Shown here in pieces: positions 5,085-61,551 of a stretch of 64,000 nucleotides of DNA. The translations under genes and the position numbers were made by a program. How positions within the stretch are numbered: position 1 is the first letter of the stretch; each line of letters begins with the position of its first letter. Location: the NCBI GenBank assembly GCA_002224055.1, contig AZLU01000019.1, positions 123,819-187,818 on the forward strand. Reading direction: 5' to 3'. The notes under the pieces are model-generated. The model saw nothing but the letters and a program-made list of their open reading frames with translations. It was not told where the DNA came from and ran no database searches. Origin of the DNA: Pezizomycotina sp. ARF18. Taxonomy: Eukaryota; Ascomycota.

Positions 5085-5512
5085 CTACCTCAGTTAGCAT
5101 GATCCTCCCTTAAGAGCCTAATATTTGATATTGATAATAATGGTCTCCTTTCAAGTTCTTCGCCTTATGCTTTTCCATCTATTTATTTTAGTGTTCTATA
5201 TCGCTCCGATAGGAGGTGTAATTCCCATGTCTACTGGGCCTTTCTCCTAGTAAGGCTTTAGGCATAGTAATATATAATAGTTTTTCCCTTCCACACGAAT
5301 TTACCGAGATTTGCAGAAACCGACTCTGACTACTAGACAACGCAACCATCTGAAACATGTAGCAGCGTGTAGCGTGTAGACACTTCTATCGCTTAAATCT
5401 CTATATTCTTAGCAATTTGAATTAGATTTCGTAAGCTTTAGCTACAGGGATCTAGCAGCTAAAACGCCCTCTTCTTTCGGAATCTAGCCTACCTACACGA
5501 AACCGGTCACAA
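5085..5512. other. Intergenic, 3' region of the Gly-rich gene
   Basis: AT-rich, no coding signal seen; probably 3' UTR and the promoter of the protease remnant. Confidence 0.4.
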
Positions 5513-15338: not shown

Positions 15339-15395
15339 CCTAAAGATATAAAAGCTCGCCTAGCGGGTCCCCTACCCGATTTTCTACATATATAA
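15339..15395 (+). promoter_or_regulatory. TATA-containing promoter of DUF6594 copy 2
   Basis: The sequence gatataaaagctcgcctagc plus the nearby cccgattttctacat matches the promoter of copy 3 at 18720-18780 (atataaaagccgcctagc, cccgattcatgtt). Here an AT-rich block separates it from its gene. Confidence 0.6.
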
Positions 15396-15408
15396 AGAAA
15401 GGATAAGG

Positions 15409-16046
15409 TTTTTTTTTTTTTAACTTAGTAAGTTTAAACTATTTTTAGCTTTTAATCATAAATAAAATATAATTAAATTATAATTAAGCTATAATTAGGC
15501 TATGACTAAATCAACTAAACTATATTTAAGTTATAGCTATACTATAACTAAGCTCCCTATTATTAAATCAACTTGTAATAAAAATATAAATTTAATACAG
15601 AAAAATAATTATTATTGAATCTTTGAATAAAATTATTCTATTTTTACTATCTGATAAAGAAATTTTTCAATGCTAAATTAAAAACAAAAAAAAATTTAAT
15701 TATTATAATATATATTCAAGTTATTCAAAGCCTTGAACCTATTTTTTTTATTAAATAATAAATTATTATTTAAGATAAAGCTTTTAAGATTTATTTTACA
15801 TCTATTAATTAATACTAAAAGATTTATAAAATTTATATTAAAATTATTTTATCAAAAAAAAAAAGGACTTTATTATAGATAAAAATTATAAAAGACTTAT
15901 TAACAACTTAAACATATTTTTAAAATTCTTAAATATTAAGCTTATTATTAAAAATTTTTAAAAATACGTTTAAGAGTTTAAAAATACTATAATTAATAAG
16001 TCTAATATCCTTTATAATAAAAAAATTAAAGTTTAATAATTTTAAA
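15409..16046. mobile_element. AT-rich block, likely RIP-decayed insertion
   Basis: About 640 bp made almost entirely of A and T, starting in a T run at 15409 and ending abruptly at aaaattg/caagcagg. It sits between the promoter and the coding body of DUF6594 copy 2. Sharp edges and extreme composition fit a repeat mutated by repeat-induced point mutation, but no ends or family can be recognised. Confidence 0.5.
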
Positions 16047-16426
16047 ATTGCAAGCAGGCAGTCTGGGTACGAGAGAAAGGTCGGCTTCTAAACTCTCTTT
16101 CCGGCACGAAGATTTTTGTTTGCCATGCAATCATGCCTTGCATATTGAGAAACGACGAATAGGATCAAGCACAGCCTCGCTAAGACGCTCCTTGTGCTCA
16201 TCCACCGCGTTGTTAAAAACCGCGCAGAGATCCCCTTCGAAAAAAGGGGGGTGGGATTCAGTCATCAAAGGAAACTTACCCTTTCTAGCCCTTTGACACA
16301 GGTCAAATTTGCTGCCCTTTCCATCCTCCGAAAAGTAAGGCTTGCACTTTGCAGGAGCCCTTCTTTTCCGTCCCTTCTGCCTGAGCAGACATTGTAGGAA
16401 CGCGAAACGGAGCACCGCGGAACAAA

Positions 16427-17561
16427 ATGCCTCCTCCACTGGCCCCCAGTAAGCATACCTTAACACCACAAGGTACGCTGACTCAGAGCTACCGTTACTA
16501 ACCCTACCCATAGATTCCACCACCTCCACCTCTACAGTTCCAGGCGCCGTTCAATATGCTGCCAGGGATGAATATACCTTACCATTACCCGCCTCAGCAG
16601 GAAAATCAGCAGCAACCTCCGGTGGTTGCGGCAGGGCTGGGACAGAGGTTATCAGAGCTTTGCCGCATTCATAGACCTAAACAACCACTTGATGCTCTTT
16701 CCGACGGTTCGGGTCATTAAGCGTCAGGACTCTGCCATACATGCAAGATGAGATTGCCGCTCTCGAGGATCGGTTAAAAGAAGAGGACGAGTAGCAGAAA
16801 CAAATCACCTTGGCCTCGGCAAAAGAAATTCGGCTCGGACGAGAAGAAAAAAGATAATGTATCAGCTACGGGACTTTATTAAAAGAATATAGTATGTTAT
16901 TTTATCATCTTTAGTTGTACGCAGGCAAAGATGTATTTATTTTGAGATTAACGTGCTTTGCCGGCAGTTGAATGTTAGAAATATTCGCGACAATGCGAAA
17001 ACACGGCTAGTAGCGTCCAAAACACAGAGATAGAGCCTTTTTTCACTGGCTGGATGGCCGGAAAACCCTCGTTAACGAAGAGCGAGCATTTGTAGAGAAG
17101 GAGAATGACTTGATCGCGATATTTATAATCGAAAAAAGTCTCCTTGATCGCCTAGTAAGTCAGAGTCCGTGGTTGATAAAAACACCTTTCTGGAAAAAGT
17201 AACAAATGACCTCTAATTTCACCCGCTTCACTTCAAGTTGACTAAACTTTGAAACATTAGAAAACAATCCTAACAGAGGTAGCTCCAGACAAGGAGATAT
17301 CTTTCTATAGCGACTGCTCCGTCGCAAGAACAGTCAAATGGGTGTTATTTTTCTCAGTCTTGTCTTCTTAATACTGCCAATGCTCGTCCTGCAACTTACG
17401 CTAAATGATAAGAACGTGGGCGTTAGGGTGGGCTTCACGGCAGCGTTTATTGTGATATCGGCATTTACCCTAGCGCGGCCAGCGAGATATTAGCGGCAAC
17501 AGCAGGATATTCGGCTGTTCTGGTGGTTTTTATGGTAAACCAAGTAAACGGGCCCGGGTAG
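16427..17561 (+). pseudogene. DUF6594 membrane protein, copy 2 (degraded)
   Basis: The N-terminus is proline-rich (MPPPLAPSKHTLT, then FNMLPGMNIPYHYPPQQ). The signature region follows in another frame: SFAAFIDLNNHLMLF, then DEIAALEDRLKEEDE. The membrane-proximal part reads EISFYSDCSVARTVKW and the last helix is YSAVLVVFMVNQVNGPG, with a stop at 17561. Compared with copy 1 it carries several stops and frame changes, including one directly after LKEEDE. Like copy 1, the last helix is encoded without the intron seen in copies 3 and 4. Its promoter lies upstream of the AT-rich block, so it is probably not expressed normally. Confidence 0.65.
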
Positions 17562-18719
17562 GGTCTGGAGGTTCTTAGAACTTTTTATATTAAATGCCAC
17601 GGCACCTATAATAATGATATGACGGCTATAGCGCTACTTCATTGTGGTATTATTGTTTCTGTTTCGTATGGAATTTTGTTATATATAGAAATCCGTCGCT
17701 TTTTCGGTCTAAACTTCTAGTACGTACAGTTAGATTGGAGTGTTTGCCCGTCTCTAATACAATATCTATTCTTAGAGCTAGTTGTAGATCACAAGCAACT
17801 TTGGGTATAGGAAGATTCTATATTAATGGTCAAGGCTATCCAAACCTGAACTACTATGGATTACAATGCAAGGCCGGATGTGACAGTGTAATATGACTTT
17901 AATCATCACACTAGTACTATGCATCTCCAGTCTACACCAAAGCCACATTCAGAAACCAGCAGTTATGGTAACTCTATAAGTCATTCACCACTTTAACTCT
18001 CCTCGGTGTGCGAGCTTCTTCGTTACTGCGAACAAAAGAGGGGCTGTTTTGATGCCTAGTAAACCTACTTGTAGGGTTTGTCTTTTTTGACCACGAAAGA
18101 TCAATTCGCGTTCGGATACTTTGTCTTTCAGAAGTTTCATGCTCAAAACTAGTTTAAGGTCAGCTGGTATTGCCACTAGTTTATGCATGTACGGTTCCGT
18201 CGTACACGCGTTTGTGTTGTGAATCCCAACACCAGTATCCAGCAAACGGAGATATCATCCTCTAACAGTACGCCTCGGTCTGGAGCGTAAAGAACAATGA
18301 ATAACAAACAAACCTCGTTTAAAACATCAGAAGGGTTCGCGTTATCATTGATCCTAGTTCCTACCTTCGTTCAAGCAGGCTCTTGCTCGAAAATCCCAAC
18401 AGTTCTAACCAAGGCTGGATATGCTAGCAATTTTGAATGTTTTATAGAAAAACATCGAACAAATCACAGCCCGCCACGAAGGAAACATCTAATATATTCA
18501 AACGCACTGAGAGAAAGAAGCGACCGCGCGCTTGAAGTTGAACTTGGTAGCCTAATTAAAGGTCCATAAACCGCACGTAGAACGCCAGGACAACAAAGTC
18601 TTGATATCACAAAAGGATTTACATCTGCAACTGCGATAAACTTTAGTAGTTCAAACCCGAATTCTTCAGGTTCCCCCGAAAACCATCAAGTAAGCAGGCA
18701 CTGAGAAACAAAATGCGCC
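17562..18719. other. Spacer of DUF6594 repeat unit 2
   Basis: No supported gene. The segment 18209-18265 is homologous to 14990-15055 in the previous unit. A 90-codon frame at 18297 has no recognisable features. Confidence 0.45.
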
Positions 18720-18785
18720 TCCCAGATGCTCCAAATATAAAAGCCGCCTAGCATCTGGGCGGCCTTAAGCCCGATTCATGTTGCC
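18720..18785 (+). promoter_or_regulatory. TATA promoter of DUF6594 copy 3
   Basis: The sequence ccaaatataaaagccgcc lies about 100 bp before the ATG at 18831. It matches the stranded promoter of copy 2, so it shows the original promoter-to-gene spacing. Confidence 0.6.
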
Positions 18786-18830
18786 TGTACTAACCATTTG
18801 TTGAAATTAGATTACCACCACCCCCCTTGA

Positions 18831-19907
18831 ATGTCGGAAAGGCTCGCGTCGGGGCTATCCAAACCTAGCTGCCTTCATTAACCATGAGTTGAATGACTCC
18901 ACGATTTTTCCGCCGATTCAGTAGCTTAAATGTTCGAGCACTTTTATATATGCAAGACGATGTCTCGAATCTCGAGGACGCGCTCAAAGAGAAGACAGAA
19001 ACAGCTCCAAAATGGCATTGATCTAGGTATCAAGGATTTAGACTCTCACGAGAATAATAATGTATGAGCTACAGTCTGCGTTAAAGGAGTATAGTAAGTT
19101 TTTCTGATTACTGCTCTAGCTATAGAATTTTATATTATCTATCAAGAGGTCAAACGCTAGGCGATTTCTAATAGACCTCGCAGTGGAATACCTGACGCTC
19201 GTACTGCAACTGCGTAAATTCGATCCCCCTTCGGAAGAATAATGGGGAAGTTTTTTCAAGCAGATGCATGCATGGACACCATTAGTTTGCAAAGAATAAA
19301 GGTTCGTTTCCAAGGAAAGGACCTGCTTATTCATCTAGACGAAGAAAGGAGCCATGCAGATCGATTTTTGACTCAAAGTTTAACTACAGGTTGGTTGAGC
19401 AGTTTATGAAGGTAAAGTTCTATCTCCATGCCATTAGAAATATCGCCCGGATCGCACTAATCGATTTTATTATTTCAAATCATCTGGAAAAAGAGCTTAC
19501 CGGCTGAAGTGCGGGGAGAACCGCAGATTATGCTCATAAATTCTAGGCCCACCAGTAGGTCGGCGACGGTGCTCATAGGGTTGACCTTCCTGTTACTACC
19601 TATGCTCATTTTGTAGCTATCTCTGGGGAATAAAAGCGCTGGAGTGAGGGCTGGCTTTACAGCTGCGTTTATCACCTCCTTCTCGCTCCTTATGTGCGCC
19701 TTTACACTTGCAAAGGCATCGGAGATCTTGGGGGCGACAGCAGGGTACGTAAAGGCGATTACGACGGTCGAGGCTTTTTGTAGTTTGTATAGCTAACCGT
19801 CCAACATTGGGTATGCTGCTGTACTCGTGGTGTTCATAGCTCAGAACAATGTTCCCCAGAATACGGCGCTCGGTTTGACTACGAACTCGACATCGCCCGG
19901 AATCTGA
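18831..19907 (+). pseudogene. DUF6594 membrane protein, copy 3 (degraded)
   Basis: Signature pieces are YPNLAAFINHELN, RRFSSLNVRALLYMQ and DDVSNLEDALKEK. The C-terminal domain reads RSATVLIGLTFLLLPMLIL, LSLGNKSAGVRAGFTAAFI and LLMCAFTLAKASEILGATAG. An intron position matching copy 4 then precedes YAAVLVVFIAQNNVPQN and the stop at 19907. The 3' splice site of that intron looks lost (ends TTGG rather than CAG). The middle exon is the most eroded part. It is closest to copy 4 by C-terminal sequence and gene structure. Confidence 0.65.
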
Positions 19908-20488
19908 GACTGGAAACCATGCAGGCCTGTTTCTCTCCTTGGCGCCGGCTTAGACGGGCCGTTTCATCCTTCTTGAGGTTGCAGATTTTTGAATGTTGCA
20001 GTTAAATCATAACCGGGAAACATCAGGGTTCAATACATCTCAACAAGGCGTGATATAATAGAAGTTTAACGGCTCTGTAGTAATGTATTCACCGTGACTA
20101 CGGTGAGACATCCGTAGATCGATATACCACCTCCAGTATTCCTATACCCTAATAGACGCTTTCTGAGAAATATAACAGTCTATCGGCCAACATTAAAGAG
20201 AAGTTTAAGTCCGGTCTCAATCTTCCCTGGAGTGCAAAGTTTTGTTTGCCGCAGTACTGGAGGTGCCGGTGGTCTAAATTCCTGCACGGCTGAAAAAACC
20301 GATATGCGGGGAGGCCACTGTCTGTTCTCGAAAGAGCCGCAGCCCCGCTCGCGGATTGCTCCTTAAATCCTCAACTTTTCTTTCCAAACTGAAGGCCTCA
20401 TACATACCCAAACAAGGCTGGCAAATTCTCACCGGCGAGCTACAATATCGCCCAAACTAATCTCGGCGTTTCGTCGAAACTTTAAACA
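19908..20488. other. Spacer between DUF6594 copies 3 and 4
   Basis: No gene or repeat recognised. Confidence 0.4.
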
Positions 20489-39565: not shown

Positions 39566-40114
39566 AGATGATATGATTTAATAAAAGAAGATGACGATGA
39601 TGAAGGAGGAATAGAAGGGCTGGGAAGAAAGTGGAATTTATTTTTTATTTATTTTTATTTATTATATTATTTTTTTTTTCTTATTGATTATCTTTTATCA
39701 TTATTTGAAATTATTCTGTCCTTTGTCCTCTACTGGCCAATTCCGGTTTGAAATTCGTTATATTAAGTTATTTTTAGCCTTTTTATATTTTATTTTTACA
39801 CTTTTGTGTTCGCCGTCGACTGCCAAATTCAATTTACTAGCAATAAATTATTAATTACTGGAAGCTCTTTTAGCCTTCTTTTAGTCTTCCTCAGCGGAAA
39901 CGTCGTTGCTCCGGGCAACGCTGTCGAGAGCTGTCACGTGGTGCATGGGCCTCCGTCAGCGGCACGAGACAGCTCCGATCGGACAGGTCCAGTCCATCAG
40001 GCTGCTTAAGGGGCTCTATCGGCGGTGACCAGGCGACGACCGTATACACCACTTGCTCAAGGTTTCCGGCAGTCTAAAATTGAAAATCCCGAAATAGCAG
40101 TCGCGCTCGTCCTC
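39566..40114. other. Intergenic between two minus-strand genes
   Basis: AT-rich half (39630-39800) and a GC-rich half (39900-40080); no gene recognised. Confidence 0.4.
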
Positions 40115-41889
40115 TCATGATGTGAAAAAAAAAACAAAAAAAGAAAGAAAAAAAAAGAAAAGGACCGCCGAACAAGAACAATCCTCTCCCTCCATCACAG
40201 CTCTCGCCCTAATCTCCCTCTCGAGTCCTTCAAATACCTCCCTCTGCTTCGCGAACATAACACCTCCAACTACCCCTACGAACTTCTCCAGTACGTCCCT
40301 CATACCGAACTCAACGAGCCACCGAGCTAACAACTCTCGCTCTACCCCCTGTTTATCTCGCACAGTGGCATTAAGCGACAGTAACATATCCGCCGCCAAC
40401 TTCTCCCTCTGTTCGACGTTCATAACACCTTTGCCCTCAGCCACATCTCACTTATATTTTACTCAAGTGCACATACCTCCCGACCTGCTTCTGCGCCGCC
40501 GTAGACCGCAGCGAAGACAGCGATGTAGCTACGGCTTCGACGACTACGTCTTCCGGCGTATTAATCGTTATTTCGGTACCGCACCACACGTGCGAGTGGT
40601 GACGCATCCAGGCGTCGTATGCGCTTTTCCGACGTGCAATCGCTTCTGGTTTATGGGCGAGAAGTGAATGCTTGCTTTGCGTCCGTGTGGGTTCGAAGAT
40701 TTGTGGAATTGAGGCGGAGGGATGAGATCAGGGACATCTTCATGGGAGGCGGGATGTGCTGGTCTCGGAGGCCGCGGGTTCGATTGCGCTTTCGATGGGC
40801 GGCATGCTAGCGATGCTCGCGACATGCAAACATCATCGTCGGCGGCGGCGGTGGAGGTGGTGGAGTGGCGATATACCGACGCTGCTCATAACTCCGATCG
40901 TCGGTGCGGCGTGGCGGTGGCACGCTCCGTTCGGTGCTTCCGCATTTATACCCGCTAGCCTCGGTGTCGCGCCCTCATCCTCGACACCCCCAACCTGCTA
41001 AAGCTCGGCGGCGGCGAATACGCGGCGGAGGCGAGCGCGTGCATCCGTGCTCACGCGGCGTTCCATTCAGACGCGGGGTCGCCGGCTATCACTACCGCCG
41101 TAGCAATCTGCTTCTTTCTGTGGAGGGAATTGAGGAGGGAGCGTGGTCAACGCGCGTGGATGTCGCATCATACCCAAGGCGCCCATTACGCTACTGCCTT
41201 ATTGTGGAGTTGCTTCTTGGATGGAGGCGGCGAGTTTTAGGAGGGCTTCTTCCTGTTTTGTGGTGGGACTCGGAGGGGCGGAGAGGGAGGTTACGGATTT
41301 CCTGGTGTTTACGCTCTGTTAGCCGTCTTACGCTCCACCTTCTCTGCTCTTCGTGCTCGTGGAGAGATAAAACAGGGAGGGAGGAGTGGTGGAGAAGAGA
41401 GGAGAGGCGTCTAAGTCACCACATAACACCCCCAACATCAAACTAATAGCGTCCGTCTGGCACCTAACCTTCTTATTCAAATCCTCCAGCTGCTTCTCAT
41501 GCACCGCTGAAAACTTGACCTTGTCGAAATTGCTCCTTACCATCCACCGTACCCCTTTTCCTTTACCCTTTCCCCGCTATTACTCTTCCCGCCGTCGTCG
41601 TCCTCTTTTACCAGTAGGTACTTCTTCAAAAATTCATCGACGCTTTGTAGTTTCGTTACAAGACGCGATGATGGTTTGCATATGTTGCATGTCTACGTCC
41701 GTTTCGGAGGGGTTTAGGGAGGGGTTTCTGGAGCCGGTTTTTGGGAGGACCTGGAGCGAGGTATTTCACGAGAGGGAGATTCTAGTTTTTCTGTAGTTGG
41801 GGGCGGACGGCGGCGGTTCTTATGCCGTAGATCTGGATGTCGGAGTAGTGGGAGATGAGGAAGGGACCGACGCCTACGCCGAACGACAT
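40115..41889 (-). CDS. Fungal protein with MSFG-type N-terminal helical domain, unrecognised role
   Basis: The minus-strand ATG at 41889 begins MSFGVGVGPFLISHYSDIQ, a start typical of fungal proteins with an N-terminal helical region. Later blocks are KLQSVDEFLKKYLLVKEDDD, RSNFDKVKFSAVHEKQLEDL and NKKVRCQTDAISLMLGVLCG, matching the W/F-spaced helices of that region. A Ser/Pro-rich middle follows, then EAIARRKSAYDAWMRHHSHV, WCGTEITINTPEDVVVEAVA, a short possible intron, and NVEQREKLAADMLLSLNATV, ELLARWLVEFGMRDVLEKF and FAKQREVFEGLEREIRARAV. The blocks lie in different frames, so the reading is provisional. It is divergent from the large RING-family gene at 43069, about 1.2 kb apart. Confidence 0.45.
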
Positions 41890-43068
41890 CTTCGCTGTCT
41901 AAGAGGTCCCCAGCCGCTCGAGGCGCAGCCGCGGGAGATTGCACGAAAAGCAACTAGGCAAAGCGAAGGCTTGCAGGGCGACAGTTCGACGCCTTTTCCT
42001 CGCAAACAACAAGGCGAATGCCGCCCGGCGGTGTACCAAACGTTTTATGGCCAGTGTGAGTCGGATGAGGCTGTGATCGCGAGCCAATACCCTTCACTCG
42101 GCGAGCGTAGATTCTCGCACGCGATGGAGACAAGAAGATGGTTTCGAGGATACTTGGAGGAAGTCTTCGGGATTTACGCTTGATTCTCAAAGCTTATCAG
42201 CCTTCAAGTGATTGCTTCGCGGGGGTTTCGTTCCAGCTCCTGTTTCGGTAGTTGCTTATCCATGCGAGCTTTTTTTTTTTTTTTTTTTTTTTTTTTCAGG
42301 CCGGCTCAGCCCCCACCTACAGCTACCCATGCATGAGAACTTTTCCGAACCAATCACGATCGCGAATTTTTGCGAAGGCGACATAGTGGAGGAGTCTTGA
42401 GGCTCTTTCGAGAGGGGACCCATGCGCCATAGGAAAGGTGGGCAACGGACTCGAGCTGAATCCGCTCTTCCTTTTTTTTTTTTTTTTTTTTTTTTTGGGG
42501 GGGGGCGGATGATTAAGGAACTTGCAACGTCAGAACGAGAACAGGACAGCCCTGTTCTGCCCTCGACAACGACTCGGCAGCTGGCGGAGGATTTTGATTA
42601 AAAAAAAAAAACTGATAGACTACATCCGGCTACCACGAGACCCCGCAAATATTCCAAACCTCCTCTCGCGAGTCCTTCCGACATACACCTCCGCAGAGCT
42701 CTTGACGATCGGCCGGTAGACCTCGCAATGGCGGCCGACATTCCCTCTCAATAACCTCCCTCCTCCCCCTCCGCACGAAGACTCCTCCGCCAAATCTTCC
42801 CTCACCCTCGTTGCCTCACCCGATACCACGATACCGCAATCCTCTCCCTCCTCGAATCGAAACACAACGTCCCGCCATCCCACATCCCCGACTCTTTATC
42901 CTCCTACACTTCCTCCTCCACAACACCGCACTACTCCCCCCACCTGTCTCTCACACTTACAACCTCCTCATTAAACACCCCTCTACGGCGCCTAATCACG
43001 TCATACCCCCTCACCGCCCACATACCGACGACGTCGAACACGACGCTAGAAATCGACGGCGGGAAATT
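41890..43068. other. Upstream region between divergent genes, with T and G runs
   Basis: Holds 27 T at 42270-42296 and 25 T followed by 9 G at 42472-42505. Pro-rich frames at 42620-43060 may be the 5' part of the next gene, but no domain supports this. Confidence 0.4.
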
Positions 43069-46000
43069 ATGCTTACATTCCACAGAACGCTGCGATTGCC
43101 GACGACGATACGCTACATCAATTACCGGCTAGTTTAGGTGAATTCCCGCTGTTTAATGTTGGTGCTTCGAGGGTAGATTACCGGAGAAGATTGTTGAGAG
43201 GGGGTGTTTTCTTTCCGATGTGGATGAGGGAGGCTGTTTGGGTTGAGTTTTCCCTCAAACAGTCCTCCTCCGTTGATAGCAGTGGGGAAGGGGGCGGCAG
43301 GGATGTGGAGGGAGGAAGAGGAAGTATGCTGTGCGCGTGTGGTGCGGCGGTATTAACGCCGTTACTGGAAAAACCATGGGGAAGGAGACGAAGAGGCGGC
43401 TGATGATGGAGGAGGACGATACAGACTCGGAAGTAGAGGGAGGAGTGGAGGAGCAGGATTACATTGTTGTGCCGGAGCAGCCGTGGTTGGACGGTGTCTG
43501 TGTGGAGGAGGGGGTTGTTAGGCAGTTTGTCGCTATGCCTCGTACGTATTCACCTTCCCGCCTCCTTCTCTAGCCATGGTATGCGGTGACTTTTTTATGC
43601 TAATGTGCAATGGCTTTTGTTTAGTCGGCTCCGGATACACAATCGAAGGCCAGAAGACCGGCGAAGAAAACACGGCGGCCTCCAACTAGAAATCATTCCC
43701 GCCGATTTACGCCATACCTACCGCGTCGAGTCGGGGACGGTGCGAGTGTACACCTGGAGTACGGTAATGGCGCTGTCACCCCGACCTCGCTAGGATTAAA
43801 GAGTGGCGATGTTGTAGACGTTAGTATATTTGATGGCTACCGTCCTACCACTATACTCGATATCCTCGAGGAAAAAGGTACAGAAAAACTAGTGTTGGCG
43901 GCGGAGTACGGCGAAGGAAAGATGAAAGCCTGGCGGGAGGAAGAACTCCGACGAAAGGCTACAGAAATACAAGCCGAAGATGGGAAGGGGCGGAGAAGAG
44001 GATGACGGAGAAAGAGAAGAGAGAAGAGAAGAAACGACTAGCGGCGGAAAAGAAAGCGGAGAAGATACGGCAGATGAAAGAAAAAACAGCAGGGAAGGCA
44101 CTACCGGGTGGATTAGCCGCTAGGAGGGCACTACCGAAGAGTTCCGGACCGAAAGATAAACTGCTGAAGAGCGATTTCCGCGTGGCAGTGGACCGCCGAT
44201 GAACTTGAAACTAGGGTCTCTAAGTCTGGAGGTTAGGTCGAAGGCGTCTCAGTCCCGCTATCGTGGTGGTGGAGGGAAGTACGAAGGGGCGATAATGGAA
44301 GCTATACTGCGGTTGAGTCAGCGCGGGGATGAGCACGGTGGACCGAGTCAAGCCCCCGAAGTGCACGCTCGACCATCTCCGCAACCCCCTCGACCGGGGT
44401 TCTCAACTCCGGCAGAGCAGGCACGGCGGGTTGCTCCGGGTTACATGACGCCGGAACAGCACGCGGGTTATCAGCAGTATTTGGCCGCTCAGCAGCAAGC
44501 CCAGGCTGCCCTTGAAGAACAGAAATCGAAGAGGGATGAGAGTCTGCGGTCTAAATTTTCTTGGAAGTCGGCACAATCCATTCCAGCCGCTGCCCTGCGC
44601 CGCAACCGCCTGTGCTGAAACTTCGACACAACATGCAGCTTATCAGCGGCAGTTAGCTGCTCAGCGCGCGCAGGTACCTACTGCCGCCACCGATTACCAT
44701 AAACCGGCGGCCCAGGAAAGCGGAGACGAAGAAGACGAGGTGCTCTACGAGAAACGCGGCCCGTAGAGATGCGAAAACCGAGGCCGACGAAAGACTACCT
44801 GGGGAAGGCTAAGGTCGTGGCGGTGGGTGATTTGAGCAGCGAGAGCCGAGTACAAATTTAGAAGGGGAATTAACGGGCAAACGTTGGGAAAGGAAGATAT
44901 CGACGAGCGGGAGCTGCGAGGGAAGAGATACTTGGGCGACTCCAGCATGGCGGGTCCTCCGCCGCTGAACCTTTTGGATGCCGATGTTTTGAAGCCGCAG
45001 AATGAATTACTGGCCAAAGCGAGAAAAGTAACAGATGAGGAGAGAGATAAAGCAAGGAATGGCGAACGCGGAACAGGAAAAACTCCAAGACGAACGGCAA
45101 CGCGCGCAGCAGGTGAAGGCGCTGCGTCGATTGTACCTGGACGATTACGAAAGCGTACAACGACAAAAACAACAACAGCAACTGCAGGACGAGGCGTCGA
45201 AATCGAAGGCTGAAAGGGAAGGTTTGCCCCTTCCACTCGAACCGGACAGCGATCCGGACCCCGCCGTGGTACACCTCCGCGTGCATGAAACCGGAAACCT
45301 ACAGATTATTGCGCCTATACGTTCTCTTGTAGCTCGACCTCTATCAGAGTTTATCCTCGCATATGCCTCCCTCGCTCCCGCTCAACAGGCTCCGACTGTT
45401 CCGCCTGAACCCTCCGGCTGCCCGACCTCCGCCCAAAATTAGTCTTGGAGATGCTACTCCCGGTACTGATGTGGATGCAAAAACAAGCTGCGGTCGATAG
45501 TTCGGTCACACAGAAGCCCCGTCGCGGAAGGCTCACGGGCGCTGCTGAACTGGCCGGTTGGAATTTAATGGGCTGGGGAGCTCCAGCAACTGAAGAACAT
45601 AAGCCTCAAGGTTCAGTCGAAGCAGTGCCCGTCGAAAATGGGTCTACGGATGATTATGATGAGGATTCGGCGAAGCTCCGGAAGACACTCGCAAAACGTC
45701 AAACCGTACGCGGCGACGAAGACGATGAAGAAGACCGGGATTATGTGGAAGCTAGGACTCGACCGAGGCGCGTGGCGCAGGCTGGTAAGTCCGGCGCGAA
45801 AATACACGGTGTCGTGTCACCTCGGAAGTCCAAGACTAGGCGAAGTCGCGCTGAAGATGAAGATGATGAGAAAGAGCGGCATGTACCTGTTGTTGCTCCC
45901 GGCTTGGGTCGCGCTGAAGTCTACATGCCCCTGCTGTATCGGAATCCATGGAGAAACCGCCGCCGCCACCATCTGTCACAACTATCGTGGGATTCACCGG

Positions 46001-47330
46001 GCCTGCTCCTCCACCGCCGCCTCCACCTCCACCTATGCGGAAAAGAAGTGATAAAGCGCTCCCTGGGTTCGCAGTAGGTGCACCGCCGCCTCCGAATAGT
46101 TTTTCCACGCCATCGCAATTTCTTTCATTCGACATTCCCACGAGCCCGCTCCTCCGCCACCGCTCCCGCCGCTTAGTGCTTCCTTTGGGCCCGCACCTCC
46201 TCCTCCTCCGCCGCCTCCTCCGCCTCCGCCGCCGCTGCCGGAACAGCGCCAGACATATGAAGCTCGTCGGCGCCTTCTTAACCCGTGTCTTGCTAACTCT
46301 TCGATAGAAAAACGGGATGAAGTCAGAATCATGGATAGCTTACTCCAGAGGTTACGAGCTGCAGACCCGGAAATTCGAGACGAGCGAGACGGAGGGAGGC
46401 GGGCACGTCTTCGTTCGATGGAGACCGCAGGTCGTCGGAGGCTCAGCTACCGAGAAGCAGAAGGGGAAAACGCAAAACCGGCGGAGCACGATTGCGTAAG
46501 TGACGACAACGACCTCCGACGAAAGAAAAGAGGAAGTAAAGCAGGATGAGCACGATGGTATGAGCGACGGTGAGAGGAGACGGGGTGGGGAGATTGGGTG
46601 GACGGGTGGAGAACACAAAGCGTAAGGAGGAAATCGCGGCCAAAAAGTTGAAGCTGGAACAACTCAAACAGCAGAGAGTACAACGAACGCAGCACCCTCA
46701 ATATGCTACATTGGCTAGGTATAATGAACCTGATCGAATGGTTGGCGATTTGACAAGTGATAAAACGCCATCGGATGCCGGTGAAGTCAAATCTGGTTCC
46801 CCAGGAGCGGAATCACCTCCGTTGAAACCCGTTGAGAGCAATGATGAGGACCTAAGTCTAGTTTGTTAGACTTGAATGAGACGATACCCAGAACGACCGA
46901 CGCAGGCGGAGATCGATGATGCGATAGCGATAATGCGTGATAACATTGCGAAGACTGTAGAACGCGGTGAGAAGCTGGATAGGTTTGGGAAAAGACGAAT
47001 GAGCTAGCCGACATGGCGTCAGCGTTTAGGAGAGGTGCGAGGGTTACTAGTAGTACTGTGGTCGTCGAGGAAGACGATGCGGCGAAAAAGAACACAAAAG
47101 GTAAGAATTGAGTGAATCGCAATTCGGGATTGCGGCCAGTCGTTGGGATCATGAAACGAAGAGAAGGGACTGCCGAGTACTCCTCCCTGCGTCCAGACTT
47201 GAAAGAATTCGGGACCGAGGGACGATGGCAAGAGGATTCTAGACTATTCGCCCCGTTCATGTCCGCCTCCATGACTACTCAGCCCATTCACGCAAAGTCG
47301 TTGTGATCTTGACAATATAGGCTATACTTA

Positions 47331-47376
<46 letters not shown>

Positions 47377-49942
47377 CTTTTTTTATTTTTAGAACAACGT
47401 TTACGCGCCGAGGTGCAAATTCCCCGCCTAAGGTCGACGAGGATGGAGACCCGCTCACGCGATTAAGCGAGAAGAGCGAGAACTGAGCGAAGAAGAGCAG
47501 GCAATAGTGTCCTACGACGATGACCCGGACCCTTATGAAAACGAATGTGAGTGGCTTTAGACGTTCGAGTCCAGCGTTCGAGTTGTGGCCCTGGTGGCTA
47601 TCTTTATTTAATCGTGAAGAGTTTTCAAAGGGCTAGGTGCTGATACTTCTTCCCCTGAATCTAGTCGACGAATCACCGATTGAAAAGAAGCCTCCGACAA
47701 CTTTGACGACGACGACATCTCGTAATAGAGGAGAACTCTGATGGTTCTGGTGGCGATACTCCCCCGCGGCGGCGGTGTGCCGGCCGGAATTACGGGTACA
47801 GACGTGCTGATCCCTTTCAGTATGCAGGCGGACAAAGTCCGAAAAGACGGTGGAGAGGACGCTCCGAATCACCTTACGGTAGCCGCTCCGCTACTGAAGC
47901 GGTATCTACGCCGCTAGAAGAGTTACCTTATGATATCTTACGATAGCTGCCCTGTGTTGAAGCGGTATCCGCGCAGATAGAAGAGTTACCTTACGAATCA
48001 TCTTATGGTAGCTACTCTGCTCCTGAAGTGGTATCTGCGCCGCCAGAAGAGTCACCTTACGAATCATTTTACGATAGCTGCCCTGTTGTTGAAGCGGTAT
48101 CCGCGCAGCTAGAAGAGTTACCTTACGAATTATCTTATGGTAGCTACTCTGCTCCTGAAGTGGTATCTGCGCGCCAGAAGAGTTACCTTACGAATCATTT
48201 TAACGATAGCTGCCCTGTGTTGAAGTGGTATCTGCGCCGCTAGAAGAGTTACCTTACGAATCATTTTACGATAGCTGCCCTGTTGTTGAAGCGGTATCCG
48301 CGCAGCTAGAAGAGTTACCTTACGAATCATTTTACGATAGCTGCCCTGTTGTTGAAGCGGTATCTGCGCCGCCAGAAGAGTTACCTTACGAATCATTTTA
48401 CGATAGCTGCCCTGTTGTTGAAGCGGTATCCGCGCAGCTAGAAGAGTTACCTTACGAATCATCTTATGGTAGCTACTCTGCTCCTGAAGTGGTATCTGCG
48501 CCGCCAGAAGAGTTACCTTACGAATCATTTTACGATAGCTGCCCTGTTGTTGAAGCGGTATCCGCGCAGCTAGAAGAGTTACCTTATGAATTATCTTATG
48601 GTAGCTACTCTGCTCCTGAAGTGGTATCTGCGCCGCCAGAAGAGTTACCTTACGAATCATTTTACGATAGCTGCCCTGTTGTTGAAGCGGTATCCGCGCA
48701 GCTAGAAGAGTTACCTTTGAATTATCTTACGATAGCTGCCCTGTTGTTGAAGTGGTATCTACATCGCTAGAAGAGGAGGAAAGTGGATCGGTCAAGCGGT
48801 CGATCTCAGACTCTCTGATAATGCCTGGAGCGTTTGCGGTCGTTCACGATGCTCAGGTTGAAAGCTCCCCAGATCTCCCACCACAGGCTGTTATAGACCC
48901 GCGGCGCCACGGTTGGGATATGGAGATCAAGTCTGAGGAGGGGAGGAGTACTTCAAGGACAAGATTGCCAGGTTGGTCTCCAGATCGGCATGGAAGACGA
49001 CAGATTTAACAATCGTTGGTACCCACCAGTCAGTGTGGAGCGTAGTGACTCTCCGCGATCAACGTGTCTCACGGCGGGATACATTTGAGCCCGAGGAGCG
49101 TAGGTCAAGACGGGATACATTCTCCCACGAAGAAGATTTGATAGACTATTCCGATGAAGACTTGGGATTCGGTTTCATAGACGACACCCCCAGCAAAAAG
49201 GTGGAAAGTTCTCCTTCGCCGCCTCCCACGCCGCCACGACAGAAAGTCGACGTCCGAGCAATGGGTATCGCGCCGGTGGTAAGCTCATCCAAGATATCAT
49301 CAAGGACGACGATAAGACAGTCAAATGGAATCCTGAGGGTTCATGTCTTCTTAACGTGCACATATTCGACTCCGCCTCTTTCGAGGCCATTACGCATATT
49401 GTTCCGCCACCGACGCGGTTACTGCTAAAGAATACGCGAAGGCGCATATCCCATTTACCATGTCGAGGAACAAGTTGGCCGGAGGCTGAAAGGCGGCAAC
49501 TTTCAAGATGTGCTATCCGTCGGACAAATGGACCGCGAGAGAATACTCGAGCAGGAGGGCGAAGACGATGACGACGAGGACTTCGATCCGCTGAAGCCAA
49601 GGATGTGTCCAGAATGCTTTATCCGGCTTTGCGATTGCATGTATGAATCCCAATTCCTTTACAAATCTTACATAAATGGAAAAGGCTAGATACTAACCTT
49701 AGGGAAATAGTGTCGGCCGTGTAATCACGTATTCTGCAATGAGTGTATAATGAACATAGCAAACGATTATGAGAACGCTGTAGCGGGAGAGTAGCCCGTG
49801 TGTTTGGTGTCAGGCATGTCGCGGGGTTCGCAGCTCCGATGAACCTGCCAGATGAGGATACTTACGTGGCGGATGTCCCGTTTCACTGCTGAACGGAGGA
49901 TGGGAGGGTCAAGTTCGCTCGATATTCACCAGCACTATGTGA
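43069..49942 (+). CDS. Giant fungal GGINA/RING-family locus with internal low-complexity, SNARE-like and tandem-repeat region
   Basis: The N-terminus (43069-43800) shows the fungal family hallmarks: MLTFHRTLRLP, DDDTLHQLPASLGEFPLFNV, GGVFFPMWMREAVWVEF, CGGINAVTGKTM, QDYIVVPEQPWLDGV, GVVRQFVAMP. An 83-bp intron (43542-43624, branch TGCTAATG) follows, then GSGYTIEGQKTGEE and GGLQLEIIPADLRHTY. The C-terminus (about 49250-49942) shows KWNPEGSCLLNVHIFDSASF, EAITHIVPPPT and DVLSVGQMDRE, then a RING-type zinc finger (CPEC, CDC, an intron at 49641-49710 with TACTAAC, CNHVFCNEC, a last C-x2-C) and HVAGFAAPMNLPDED. Between these lie about 5 kb of Q/E/K/P-rich sequence with the motifs listed separately. 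Frame changes are frequent, so whether this is one transcript or several genes is open. RING proteins are usually ubiquitin E3 ligases. Confidence 0.6.
44030..45440 (+). other. Q/A/E/K-rich coiled-coil segment inside the RING-family locus
   Basis: Alternating charged and glutamine-rich helices: RLAAEKKAEKIRQMKEKTAG, YQQYLAAQQQAQAALEEQKS, AAYQRQLAAQRAQVP, EQEKLQDERQRAQQVKALRR and RQKQQQQLQDEASKSKAERE. Separators are Pro-rich. Such composition is typical of scaffold proteins but identifies no family. The pieces alternate between frames. Confidence 0.5.
45948..46430 (+). other. Poly-proline tracts followed by a formin-DAD-like motif
   Basis: Two long proline runs (about 45950-46035 and 46190-46245, GPAPPPPPPPPPM and a second run ending PLPEQRQTYEARR) resemble a formin FH1 region. 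About 90 bp later the sequence reads RDEVRIMDSLLQRLRAADPE followed by a basic cluster (RRARL, about 46316-46410). MDxLLxxL plus basic residues is the core of the diaphanous autoregulatory domain. No FH2 domain (about 400 aa) fits between them. The resemblance is by motif only. Confidence 0.4.
46894..47055 (+). other. R-SNARE (synaptobrevin)-like motif
   Basis: The coding strand reads RPTQAEIDDAIAIMRDNIAK, then TVERGEKLDRFGK and, one frame over, TNELADMASAFRRGARVTSS. This matches the synaptobrevin heptads. The central Arg at 46963-46965 (ERGEKLD) sits where the ionic-layer arginine is expected, and FRRGA matches the C-terminal heptads. No transmembrane anchor follows; instead an acidic stretch (VEEDDAAKKNTK) and an intron with a 37-T run follow. 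A frame change falls inside the motif. Confidence 0.55.
47336..47372. repeat. T37 homopolymer inside a putative intron
   Basis: 37 consecutive T, in the likely intron following the SNARE-like motif of the large RING-family locus. Confidence 0.9.
47896..48748 (+). repeat. 66-bp coding minisatellite, 13 copies, 22-residue units
   Basis: Units begin gaagyggtatc and encode 22 residues. Type A is EVVSAPPEELPYESFYDSCP plus VV; type B is EAVSAQLEELPYESSYGSYS plus AP. The order mostly alternates, giving a 132-bp higher-order unit, with one A-like run at units 6-8. A degenerate half-unit (ESPYGSRSAT) precedes the first copy and a partial unit follows at 48749. Copies are near-identical; units 1, 5 and 13 have lengths off by one or two bases. 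The opposite strand is also open across most of the array. Confidence 0.9.
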
Positions 49943-51245
49943 TGCTCCTATGACATCACGCCCGTACCTTCCCCCTACACTCTCATTTCTCTTCGCCCTT
50001 ATATATTAAATTCCAATAAACTCTGTCCATGTCGCAATTTTGTTGCCGCTTTTGATAGCTTTAATGTGACTCATGCTTCTAGTTGAACGTATATGCGGCG
50101 TTTGTAATTTTTATTCGTACATATAAATCTTCTATCAGTCCCCGTTGCTGCTCATATTTGTTACTGTCTAGAAAACTTAATGAGGGCGATTTAACGCAGC
50201 CATTGAAGGGCTAAGCCATCTAGTAAAGCAGCTATCTCAATCTCCCGAAGTGCTGTAGCGTGGTGATAAAGCATTCACTGTAGGATCGCGGGTTTGTCTA
50301 GATCCAAACACGACTTTTGAATTCTGGCTTCAAACCTTAAGAACCATAAGATTAGGATTTTCTCAATATAAATCTTCAAGTTTCAAACCCTGTAAAGGCA
50401 CTTTCGTAACTCCAAGAAATTTCTCGAGATAACTCTTTTTTCTTCGAGGTGTCGTTACTAATAGTTTGAAGGGAGTCATCATGATGGAATGCCAAAGCTA
50501 ATATCATCGTAATCTCCCGGAGCCTTAGAGCAATCTGTAGAAGATAAAGCTAAGGAGGCTCCATCATCCTACGTGATCGAAAGTGCTAGCTATTGGGCAT
50601 GCCAAAGATGCATGATAAATCTATAGGCATCGAGATGATGCTTATATAGCTAAATAGCTAAAAGCAAGGAGCTTTAGCTACATGGAGATATTAAGATCTT
50701 AGCTGTAAATATTAAAAATTGTAATAATAAGGCGTCATGTGCCTTTAAAATAAATTATATATAGTTTATTAAAATTATAATATTATTAGTTCATTATATA
50801 TAATATTATTCCCTTAGTAAATATAGTTAATTCTGTATTAAATTTATAAGTTTAATTCCATCCCATATTATTAAATATATTATAGATCTGCACCAGCAGA
50901 AAGTACGTCGTTTTAAAGTCAATTCAGGCCCCAAAAAACCACGAACCGTCTAGATCTAGACACAGCGCCAAGGTTAATATTTGCAGTAGAGTTTACATTA
51001 TAATTTTAGCTGTGATGGCAGATACTCAAACGAAAGCTTCCATATGATAGGCTTCAAACGGAATACGTACTGTCGTTCTGAGTAGAATTGTAGTCGATGT
51101 CTTTCCAATAGATATAAGCTTGCCTACGTGCCCCGACGCATTCTGAGACCTCTTTTGCTTTTTGTGCCTTTCATTGCCCTCCTTTAACCAAATATCCCGC
51201 AACTCGCCGTCTATCCTTGAATACGACTGATTACTAGAAAAAAAA
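49943..51245. other. Gene-free stretch with AT-rich decayed block
   Basis: Strongly AT-rich at about 50690-50890, perhaps RIP-decayed. A tRNA-like stretch lies near 50240-50345 and is treated under findings. No coding region supported. Confidence 0.45.
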
Positions 51246-52631
51246 TGAAGGCTTGTATTGCTCTGATAACCTTGGGCTCGCCTCCCTTTCGGGAGCCTTT
51301 CCCGCCATTCTTGCAGAAGACAACATTGTCTCCGCACCCGAAGTGCCAAAAGAGAACGCGGCAGCTGCTGTAGCTCACGGTTCTCAATTCCATAGCTCTG
51401 ACAATATAGGCGGCAGCGTAAGGTTCCACAGTCCATCTGGTTGTAAAATGGCTCATCACACTTAATGACCACAGCTAAGAGTCAATTCTAGGCGGAGGAC
51501 ACTCAAAAAGTACTCCAGAAGATAGACCACGTGTATCGCATCGCGCTCAATGCCGACCGACTTTACGCGGAGAAAAAGAAATATCCCGCAATTACAAGAG
51601 AGTGGGATAAACCCCGACAACCCGGAGGGCCCCGCACTCGACCCGCCGAAATTTTACCAGGGCGCTTCTCAGGTGAAGGCATACTCTCGCTTAAAGGAAA
51701 ATAGCAAAGAAGCAAAATTGATCGAGAAGCGGATGAGGGTCCAATACAGTAGGACGGTGAAGAGGAGGGAGGCGATAGAAGACAGGTTTGGAAAATGGAT
51801 CCGGAGACGGAGACATTCGCGAATGAAGCTAAACTCATGGAGGAGCTTAAGTAAACACCGCCTTCCCCCTAATGTTTTTTTTTTAAGTTGATGCGAGTCG
51901 CAAGATTCGGCTGACAGTGTAACGTTAAGAGGCGCTTCTCCGGAGGGGAAAACTCTTGCCATACGGGAGCTCGGGGGCTTGAATGCCGCCAAAGAGTACA
52001 TGGTCGAGACGGATAAAGCCAATGACATGCTTGACAATCTATATAACCTGAAGGCGAAGAAGAATAGAGGCATCTTTACTCGAATCGCCGATCTTTTCAG
52101 AAGCAAGAAATCTAAAGAGGAGAATTATAAGAAGCTAGCGGCGAAATCAAAGGCGAAGGTACGTAAACCCGCTGTTAAACTAACTTAGACTGAGTAGTAT
52201 ACTAGTATCTGTGTGCTTTCATACGATTAACACCTCTTAATTTCCGAATGCAGGACCTCGCTACCTCGAAACAACTGGAAGCTAAAGTGGCCAAGAACTA
52301 AAGTGACGAGCGGGGACGACTCCCTTCTAGACGAGTCGGCGGTGCCGGCGGCTTTTTAGACGAGGTAGGCAGGGCTATGGCAATTGTCCGCGGCGAATAT
52401 TCTCTATATGAACGGCCCCCAGGCTGGGCATTGGGAAGATGCGGCCAATAAAGTAGGGTGGATGAACAAGTGCGGGCAGCTGTGCGCCGTGACTGGTAAT
52501 CGGGAGTGGATGGACATCAGCCTACGGCCGCAGCAGCGACTAGCGATGCCGGGAAGGAGGCGAGTGGGCCAGGCGCTAGCAAGGAGGAATTCTTAGATAA
52601 AGTAAAGTCGATTTTTGCAGATTTGCTTTGA
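51246..52631 (+). CDS. Helical coiled-coil protein with a signal-like start, unknown function
   Basis: The ATG at 51246 gives MKACIAL, then one frame over LGLASLSGAFPAILAEDNIV, which together look like a signal peptide. Downstream blocks are VLQKIDHVYRIALNADRLYA, SRLKENSKEAKLIEKRMRVQ, TFANEAKLMEELK, an intron ending in a T-rich stretch (about 51850-51888), RELGGLNAAKEYMVETDKAN and DMLDNLYNLKAKKNRGIF. Next come SKKSKEENYKKLAAKSKAK, an intron at about 52159-52253 (GTACGT..GCAG), DLATSKQLEAKVAKN, and possibly a last part ending GASKEEFLDKVKSIFADLL at 52631. No family is recognised. At least three frame changes are needed, and the stop after AKVAKN (near 52301) may be the real end. Confidence 0.5.
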
Positions 52632-53105
52632 TGCATTTTTCTTTTCAAATGAAGGAACTATGCCATTGTGGCCGTTCACTTTAGCGCCTACATAGGGGTT
52701 CAGGATAGCGAGAGTATTCAAACGACCAGATGTAGAATTTCAATAGGGTCAAATGAATAGTATAATACCGCACCAGATATTGTTTGATCCTCTTTGCTGC
52801 GTTTCCTCAGGTGTCCATGGAGTTACATAGTTAAAGTAGTTCTAATTCTTGGGCCGCTTCCCTAGCATCTAGCGTTTTGCTCTTCCGGATCATGGTCGGC
52901 ACATGAGAGTTCTGAATGTAAGGGAGACTGAAATACTGAGAGAATCTAACGGTAATAAAAAGAACAACCGGAAACTTTAAGCTGCGTTTGTGTATACCAG
53001 GTAAGCTGCATATTTATACGCTTCACAGTTGCGAGAAGTTTAAAATTACGAATAAGTTGCAAATGTCCGGCGACCCTAGGAGAGTAGAGAAAGTCTAACG
53101 ACTTC
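52632..53105. other. Intergenic, no supported gene
   Basis: AT-rich; nothing recognised. Confidence 0.4.
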
Positions 53106-58356: not shown

Positions 58357-58787
58357 AATGGAAGCTGCGTATTCTGTTTATGTAGTAAATGATAATTTTT
58401 CTTCTTAAGTTCTTAATTTTATAATCCTCCTTTCCGTCCTCGGCTATCGCTATAACAGCTAAAGCTTAAAACCCCGTTTCTCAATTTTCAGTTGAATCGA
58501 AGGATTTACGTATTATATACCAAAGCCCCTCGTCATCCTAGCAAACATTGTGTCCTTGAATCCCTCTCTCGAAATGGAAGCTGCGTATTCTGTTTATGTA
58601 GTAAATGATATTTTTCTTCTTAAGTTCTTAATTTTATAATCCTTTTCCGTCCTCGGCTATCGCTATAACAGCTAAAGCTTAAAACCCGTTTCTCAATTTT
58701 CAGTTGAATCGAAGGATTTACGTATTATTTTATCCACAAAGCCCTCCGTCATCCTAGCAAACATTGTGTCCTTGAATCCTCTCTCGT
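58357..58787. repeat. Tandem duplication, two 216-bp copies
   Basis: 58357-58572 and 58573-58787 are head-to-tail copies starting aatggaagctgcgtattctg and ending ccttgaatc..ctctctcg. They differ by a handful of one- to few-base indels and substitutions. The copied segment is the 3' flank of the damaged secreted-protein gene and is AT-rich non-coding. Confidence 0.92.
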
Positions 58788-60807: not shown

Positions 60808-61551
60808 AAAACATTTCCCCCAAACGATCCGAGCTCCCAGCTGCTTATCTTTTTTTTTTTTTTTTTTTTTTTTTAATTTTGCTTCTTTGTTCTTCTTGTT
60901 TTGGTTGCTGTTATTACGAAAGCATGTATCCTATATCAAAATATTTCTATCCTTTGAATCAAATATACGAAGTTCAAGATTCGATAATATGGATATCGGG
61001 ACAAGATCGCCTCGAAATAGCCTCTCCTTTATAGCAAACGTGTACATGAGTCCGGAGCCGTAACTCGTCTTAATTTGGTACTCCATTCGAGTTTCCAAGG
61101 CTTTGAAGATCTGTTCGAAGCTCTATCGTCCTCTTCAAATCCTCGACGCTATCTCAACGCCGACTGTTCGCGAGAAACCATTAGAATCGATTTTCGTAAC
61201 CGCGAAATAAAGCAATATTAATAATACTTAAATTATAAACAGTAAAAATAAAATCAGCAGTACTTCTCCTTCCATCAGTCAAGGCTCCAGAGGCTGTATT
61301 TTCTGCGTCCCGTAGGGTATCGGTTTCCCCATCTTCAACCGTCTCCACGCCTGTGATGTTCGAGAGCTTCACCACATCAGGGACTATTGGGATGGCGAGC
61401 AAGGACTGGTCGCCCTTCCCAGGGCTTTCTGGATGCCGCGTCTCTGGGCCTCGGTAGGCCTCGACCTCATTTCCATATCTCAGCTCGTCTATTATTACGG
61501 GGGTTTTTTTTGTTCTATTTCTTTTTTCTTTTGCCTTTTGAAATTTTTGCA
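60808..61551. other. Intergenic with T25 run
   Basis: 25 T at 60850-60874. Frames on the minus strand (61181-61669) run into the MITE and are not supported. Confidence 0.45.

What the first reader, a model, noticed from the sequence alone, without database searches (positions are those of the whole stretch)
43069..49942. RING-family gene whose two conserved halves are split by 5 kb of SNARE-, DAD- and minisatellite-bearing sequence
The conserved N-terminal half (THFHR-type start, GGINA, QDYIVVP, VVRQFVAMP) and the C-terminal half (NVHIFDSASF, VPPPT, RING with CPEC..CNHVFCNEC) both match what I know of one fungal family. Here about 5 kb of coiled-coil, poly-proline, R-SNARE-like and 22-residue repeat sequence, all on the same strand, lies between them. 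If transcribed as one gene this would be a new type of RING protein joining ubiquitin-ligase and membrane-fusion or cytoskeleton motifs.
Basis: partly seen in the sequence, partly recalled or inferred. Interest (0 to 1): 0.75.

Follow-up and report, generated by a model that had tools for sequence, protein, structure and literature searches.

The report
Giant RING gene with SNARE insert
In this fungal genome the two conserved halves of a RING-finger protein family lie on one strand about 5 kb apart, and the DNA between them encodes a formin-like tail motif and a SNARE motif; it is likely one very long gene whose protein is predicted to link ubiquitin tagging with actin and vesicle-fusion machinery, but no transcript has been tested.

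Summary
The N-terminal (43.07-43.91 kb) and C-terminal/RING (49.24-49.89 kb) blocks of one fungal protein family are present on the + strand, in order, about 5.3 kb apart; relatives have 20-343 residues there (28 of 88 measurable), three compact paralogues in this genome 0.45-0.9 kb. The DNA between holds an R-SNARE motif without membrane anchor (Pfam E 3.9e-12, frames joined; first half alone matches yeast Snc1, E 6e-7) and a formin tail/DAD matching this fungus's own formin (E 4.8e-9), but no FH2. Thirty small frame switches interrupt the path; HSP70 genes of the same assembly break alike, so I read them as assembly indels. Stop-free tiling of 43.91-47.10 kb needs 14 segments, fewer than any of 300 shuffles. 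One gene is likely but unproven: no transcript, weak codon signal at 46.5-48.2 kb, and a long putative intron with poly-T at 47.10-47.39 kb. The two searches that covered long proteins found no relative with such an insert; their reach is limited. Bacterial relatives carry both halves in one protein, with a predicted disordered loop where the insert sits. Best mechanism (inferred): a RING-ligase scaffold carrying a decoy R-SNARE and a formin-binding DAD.

The parts
42770..43064 (+). N-terminal stretch (about 100 aa), family-like by eye only; true start lies here or upstream
   Evidence: frame path; faint resemblance to the linker before the FHRT motif of relatives, read by eye; no significant hit of its own
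43065..43541 (+). conserved N block, first part (LGxFPLFNV, GGVFFPMW, GGINAVTG, QDYIVVPEQPWLDG, VVRQFVAMP)
   Evidence: tblastn with homologues; 86 relatives
43542..43624 (+). predicted intron (GTACGT...TTTAG), restores MP-LGSGYTIEGQ
   Evidence: sequence and homologue pieces on both sides
43625..43910 (+). rest of the N block and a stretch like the degenerate ubiquitin-like part of relatives
43911..45924 (+). charged, disorder-prone, coiled-coil-like coding stretch; start of the insert
   Evidence: tiling; 43910-45925 needs 7 stop-free segments, 300 shuffles mean 17.9, min 11; composition
45957..46237 (+). poly-proline (FH1-like) stretch in two frames
46238..46417 (+). formin-type tail: YEARRRLLNP... 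and DAD (46331-46417); no FH2 before it
   Evidence: own formin identified by Drf_FH3 E 2.1e-36
46591..46860 (+). charged coiled-coil-like stretch ahead of the R-SNARE
   Evidence: not significant by codon usage (53 of 200 shuffles as high for 46515-46900)
46903..47042 (+). R-SNARE motif, zero-layer Arg codon 46963-46965; one frame switch at 46992; no hydrophobic anchor after it
   Evidence: frames joined; first half alone, single frame
47101..47392 (+). putative intron (GTAAGA ... poly-T ... TTTTTAG), 292 bp: weakest joint of the one-gene model
   Evidence: sequence; T-rich tract 47336-47390
47547..47664 (+). putative intron (GTGAGT ... CTAG), 118 bp
   Evidence: sequence
47865..48775 (+). 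minisatellite, 66-bp unit x 13.9 = 22-residue repeat
49245..49602 (+). conserved C block (RAMGIAPxGGKLIQDI, NVHIFDSASFEAITHIVPPPT, IPFYHVEEQV...SVGQMD)
49603..49889 (+). RING finger (CPEC ... C-N-H ... C-N-E-C ... C-Q-A-C) and trailing FAAPMNLPDED
49641..49710 (+). predicted intron inside the RING (GTATGA ... CTAAC ... ATAG), brings CDC next to RPCNH
   Evidence: sequence, homologues

Best explanation
The two conserved halves of a fungal RING protein family, with a formin-type tail (DAD) and an R-SNARE motif encoded between them on the same strand, are likely parts of one gene for a protein of roughly 2,200 residues that would act as a soluble ubiquitin-ligase scaffold linking actin-cable and vesicle-fusion machinery. 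Shown: presence, order and strand of both halves; homology of the R-SNARE (yeast Snc1 type, with zero-layer Arg) and of the DAD (this fungus's own formin); no hydrophobic segment like a membrane anchor in the composite; insert located where relatives vary in length. Inferred: one transcript; folding of the two halves together around the looped-out insert; RING recruiting an E2; R-SNARE binding Q-SNAREs as a decoy because it lacks an anchor; DAD binding the DID of the formin and releasing its autoinhibition, or bringing formin and t-SNAREs to the ligase as partners or substrates. Copy-number change of the 66-bp repeat would change only spacer length, since the unit is a whole number of codons.
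For: Family identity of both halves: 86 relatives at E<=1e-3 among 7,993 scored and tblastn, where each of the 23 best relatives (P0001-P0023) has hits to both blocks. Separation: 20-343 residues in the 28 of 88 proteins where both marks could be found, about 0.45-0.9 kb in three compact paralogues here. Middle coding on +: 14 stop-free segments for 43910-47100 against a shuffle mean of 28.5, minimum 19 of 300, at 228 bp per segment, like the formin (219) and HSP70 (280, 394); unbroken + coding path 42755-46514 and 48219-49603 by codon model. R-SNARE. DAD. Frame switches explained by assembly: HSP70 pieces, in profile order, change frame five times over 1,682 bp on C49 and four times over 1,181 bp on C70 (counted by hand). 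No anchor: highest 19-residue mean hydropathy 1.29. The two halves form one confident bacterial module (AlphaFold2 of P0038: pLDDT 88.0, pTM 0.86) with low-confidence residues 195-214 at the junction; a Fusarium relative carries a ubiquitin domain about there (P0026 residues 220-278; position between the blocks read by eye).
Against: No transcript. The codon model calls 46515-48218 non-coding, and it is weak: the known N block scores higher on the minus strand (12.7 against 17.9) and an upstream stretch taken as intergenic scores 12.6, with 3 of 200 shuffles as high. 45925-47100 needs fewer segments on the minus strand than on the plus (5 against 7); the upstream control 39600-42700 is also low on + (1 of 300 shuffles as low). 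Putative intron 47101-47392 is long, and unspliced the frame meets a stop within about 10 bases of 47102. The second half of the R-SNARE alone has no PDB hit, and a genome search with the Synaptobrevin model did not list the window copy. Searches covering long proteins found none with the insert. RING Pfam scores stay under the curated cut-off here, as in P0001, P0003, P0007 and P0087 but not in P0013, P0021 and P0024.
Confidence: 0.45

Rival explanations
1. Two genes, head to tail: an upstream gene (N block, coiled coil, DAD, R-SNARE) ending near 47.11 kb and a downstream gene (repeat, C block, RING) starting after 47.39 kb; an ancestral family gene was split.
For: Stop just after 47102 in the R-SNARE frame, T-rich tract and no codon signal around 47.1-47.4 kb. 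This genome also holds loci where only the N block (C127, C204) or only the C block (C41) was found, so halves may occur apart.
Against: GTAAGA donor and TTTTTAG acceptor flank the gap; coding tiling resumes on the same strand and runs into the C block; in the 23 best relatives both halves are in one protein (23 of 23).
Confidence: 0.3
2. Decayed or rearranged locus: an old family gene into which pieces of other genes (formin tail, R-SNARE) were inserted, now a pseudogene.
For: 30 frame switches; module fragments without their catalytic or anchoring parts (no FH2, no membrane anchor).
Against: HSP70 genes show the same kind and a similar density of frame breaks; all eight RING ligands, the zero-layer Arg and the DAD core are intact in sequence; middle stop density is far below shuffles.
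Confidence: 0.13
3. Assembly mis-join of unrelated loci.
For: Error-rich assembly of 408 contigs; N-only and C-only loci were found.
Against: The first junction lies inside one open frame (43742-43996) and the last within two adjoining frames (49069-49278, 49275-49415); same strand throughout; outside the window the DAD piece finds only the formin and the R-SNARE piece only the C266 R-SNARE.
Confidence: 0.07

Closest known systems
   Same: N block and C block in the same order (23 of 23); RING pattern found in part of them
   Different: 119-343 residues between the blocks in the 12 with a RING pattern and both marks; no hit to the insert at E<=1e-4 in the rows printed for P0001-P0031, apart from one piece reaching to 48886
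Tomosyn (soluble decoy R-SNARE)
   Same: Synaptobrevin-like R-SNARE motif in a large protein without a membrane anchor, as PMC8377282 (passages) describes tomosyn
   Different: No WD40/LGL scaffold reported by Pfam; R-SNARE is internal, not C-terminal
Diaphanous-related formin (own copy on C283, L044)
   Same: Poly-proline stretch and the YEARR..LNP tail with DAD
   Different: No FH2 and no FH3 reported in the window gene; the own formin has Drf_FH3 E 2.1e-36 and an FH2 fragment E 3.1e-8, just under its cut-off
Bacterial ~343-aa module (P0038 and kin; 535 stretches confirmed in genome contigs, 80 kept)
   Same: N and C blocks in one protein
   Different: No Pfam RING and no insert in P0038; 43 of 72 recovered family ORFs have an XRE-type HTH gene directly upstream

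Membership tests
fungal UBL/RING family (P0001-P0023) | conserved N block | tested here: met
fungal UBL/RING family (P0001-P0023) | conserved C block | tested here: met
fungal UBL/RING family (P0001-P0023) | C3HC4-type RING with eight ligands at the C terminus | tested here: met
   ligands read from sequence across three frames; Pfam RING models only E 7.9e-4 and under the curated cut-off, as in P0001, P0003, P0007
fungal UBL/RING family (P0001-P0023) | N-terminal ubiquitin-like domain | tested here: inconclusive
   no Pfam hit from 42755 on; 42.4-42.75 kb was not scanned; broken frames
fungal UBL/RING family (P0001-P0023) | short spacer between N and C blocks (descriptive, not catalytic) | tested here: not met
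   about 5.3 kb here against 20-343 aa in 28 of 88
synaptobrevin / R-SNARE | R-SNARE motif with zero-layer Arg | tested here: met
   Arg from sequence and alignment to Snc1
synaptobrevin / R-SNARE | C-terminal membrane anchor | tested here: not met
   stretch after the motif is charged. Works at most like a soluble R-SNARE
formin | DAD | tested here: met
formin | FH2 domain | tested here: not met
   no Pfam FH2 in pieces or composite, while one search finds an FH2 fragment and FH3 in the own formin
tomosyn | WD40 / LGL propeller scaffold | tested here: not met
   no WD40
E3 ubiquitin ligase (function) | E2 binding and ubiquitin transfer | not testable with these tools
   needs biochemistry

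The most novel reading that the evidence does not exclude
A single fungal polypeptide that is at once a RING ubiquitin ligase, a trans-acting formin activator (DAD without FH2) and a soluble decoy R-SNARE, the last two carried in a giant insert looped out of one module shared with bacteria: one molecule that could switch polarized actin cables and exocytosis by ubiquitylation.
Probability: 0.3. Interest if true: 0.75.

Novelty: new variant of a known kind. Interest (0 to 1): 0.52.

Why it matters
If one transcript spans the locus, it is a new domain combination joining ubiquitin ligation with a formin regulatory peptide and an R-SNARE, and it would give a direct molecular test of whether fungi couple actin cables, vesicle fusion and ubiquitylation in one scaffold. 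It also draws attention to a protein module shared by fungi and bacteria (535 stretches confirmed in one scan of prokaryote genomes; species not counted) for which no Pfam model matched the bacterial P0038 and no NCBIfam or PADLOC model matched the proteins tested.

Full report
What is there. The window is part of contig C19 of a 46.4-Mb, 408-contig genome whose best named relatives in the protein search are ascomycete fungi. Translating the + strand in three frames and placing open pieces chosen by eye gives 38 segments that tile 42770-49889. Of the 37 joints, 30 change frame without a putative intron (overlaps of 1-32 bases or gaps of 1-16), four are intron-like gaps, and three keep the frame but skip 9-36 bases with a stop or a frame excursion. 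The introns at 43542-43624 and 49641-49710 lie inside conserved motifs and bring them together (MP-LGSGYTIEGQ; CDC next to RPCNH), so they are supported by relatives; the annotated relative P0013 has extra residues at exactly the second place, by eye a retained intron. Those at 47101-47392 and 47547-47664 rest on splice-site letters alone.

Why the frames are broken. As a control I searched the same genome for HSP70. On contig C49, six pieces covering profile positions 39-597 in order change frame at each of five steps in 1,682 bp (four overlap, one leaves 31 bp); on C70 four steps in 1,181 bp (counted by hand from that table). The gene here has about one step per 240 bp. No stop-to-stop frame in the 64-kb window exceeds 283 residues. 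The breaks are therefore best read as indels of the assembly. This also means that in-frame continuity cannot be used as strict proof of one gene.

The family. A query of the two halves alone found 86 proteins at E<=1e-3 among 7,993 scored. The best 23 (P0001-P0023, 371-867 residues; 22 with fungal names) are annotated, where annotated, as hypothetical, RING-type domain-containing or integral membrane proteins; many of the rest are metagenomic or bacterial proteins, mostly of about 320-350 residues. tblastn of P0001-P0023 places N block pieces at 43.0-43.9 kb and C block pieces at 49.2-49.97 kb for 23 of 23; for P0024-P0031, the others printed, only N block pieces passed E 1e-4. The distance between the end of the GLQIEIIP motif and the AAGGK motif could be measured in 28 of 88 proteins: 20-343 residues; in the 12 that also match a RING pattern, 119-343. 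My patterns missed the other 60.

Paralogues. The same genome has three compact copies, with N-to-C gaps of about 0.45 kb (C5), 0.9 kb (C173) and 0.7-0.8 kb (C35), two loci where only the N block was seen (C127, C204) and one with the C block only (C41); 10 kb more on the relevant side of the last three gave no partner block at E<=0.01. The window copy, with about 5.3 kb, stands alone among these.

The middle. R-SNARE: the joined motif scores E 3.9e-12 against Pfam Synaptobrevin, E 1.4e-10 inside a longer composite, and matches yeast Snc1 in PDB at E 4.2e-10. The first 30 residues, in a single unjoined frame, still match Snc1 at E 6e-7; the second piece alone finds nothing at E<=10. The zero-layer arginine is present. 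A genome search with the Synaptobrevin model lists two other loci, C266 and C356, and not the window copy, whose frame is broken. No segment of the composite reaches the hydropathy of a membrane anchor (maximum 1.29 over 19 residues). DAD: the stretch after the poly-proline run finds, outside itself, one locus in the genome, C283, at E 4.8e-9. That locus is the fungus's formin: Drf_FH3 E 2.1e-36 and an FH2 fragment E 3.1e-8, just under the cut-off. The match is the formin tail plus DAD (44% over 52 columns), 59.3 bits against at most 31.2 for 500 shuffled queries. No FH2 was reported in the window gene. The 66-bp minisatellite, 13.9 copies, encodes a 22-residue unit.

Is it one gene? For: 43910-47100 can be read on the + strand with 14 stop-free segments, against 28.5 on average and 19 at least in 300 shuffles; 47666-49235 with 7 against at least 13, though the repeat in it helps; bases per segment are like those of the formin and HSP70 controls, and unlike 50000-53000 and 15000-20000 (77 and 85 bp). 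A codon model trained on 63 frames gives unbroken + coding from 42755 to 46514 and from 48219 to 49603. The N block runs into the middle inside one open frame. Against: the codon model leaves 46515-48218 uncalled though the R-SNARE lies there; it misjudges the strand of the known N block and scores a supposed intergenic stretch as high; 45925-47100 is more open on the minus strand than on the plus (5 against 7 segments), 43910-47100 is low on the minus strand too (18), and the upstream stretch 39600-42700 also has few segments on + (1 of 300 shuffles as low), so open + frames are not unique to this gene. A stop follows directly after 47102 if the intron is not spliced. I put one intact gene at about one in two and two genes at about 0.3.

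Where the insert sits. AlphaFold2 of the bacterial relative P0038 with 44 aligned sequences gives pLDDT 88.0 and pTM 0.86; the only internal stretch under pLDDT 50, residues 195-214, lies between the two blocks. The fungal relative P0003 gives pLDDT 79.6. In the Fusarium protein P0026 a Pfam ubiquitin domain occupies residues 220-278, by eye between its two blocks. So the insert most likely extends a loop that evolution has used before. Foldseek found no PDB match at E<=0.001 for either model; NCBIfam had nothing for P0038, P0003 and P0026 and PADLOC nothing for P0038 and P0003.

Are there other long members? A search with the middle plus C-terminal part found none, and one with the N block for proteins of about 1,000-3,200 residues found two basidiomycete proteins, of 1,059 and 1,430 residues; P0087 has an MLKL_N-like N terminus below the curated cut-off, and its spacer is 311 residues. 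Both searches have limits stated under Tried and rejected.

How it would work. [quoted passage not shown] From general knowledge (recalled, no call), the DAD of diaphanous formins binds the DID and keeps the formin closed, and a DAD supplied in trans can open it; a RING recruits an E2. A protein with all three would bring formin and t-SNAREs to a ubiquitin ligase, or hold them.

Verdict. Single transcription and function are open.

Noticed in passing
L051-L130 (genome contigs), match mostly at about 5001-6040: The N+C module is a stand-alone ~343-aa protein in many bacterial records (535 confirmed stretches in one scan, 80 kept); of 72 family ORFs recovered with over 400 bases upstream, 43 have an XRE-type HTH gene directly upstream on the same strand (one HTH protein checked by Pfam). 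No Pfam, NCBIfam or PADLOC model matched P0038. Direction of descent between bacteria and fungi was not tested.
   Followed up: partly
G000, e.g. C49:53137-54818, C70:64813-65993: HSP70 genes are broken by a frame step every 300 bp or so: the assembly seems to have pervasive indels, so any 'pseudogene' or 'short ORF' finding in this genome needs this control.
   Followed up: yes
C5, C173, C35, C127, C204, C41 (L038-L043): Six further members or half-members of the family in one genome, including loci where only one block was found: a small expanded family.
   Followed up: partly
P0087, P0088: Basidiomycete relatives of 1,059 and 1,430 aa; P0087 begins with a stretch resembling MLKL_N (E 2.5e-5, just under cut-off), hinting at a link to helical-bundle cell-death-type domains.
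   Followed up: no
window 58357-58786: Two tandem copies of a 216-bp unit, 94% matches.
   Followed up: no
window 15001-16000: Marked AT-rich kilobase (GC 0.247, against 0.48 for the window), possibly a repeat-mutated stretch.
   Followed up: no
window 42270-42296, 42472-42496, 47336-47390, 60850-60874: Poly-T or T-rich tracts of 25-55 bases, one of them in the putative 292-bp intron.
   Followed up: no
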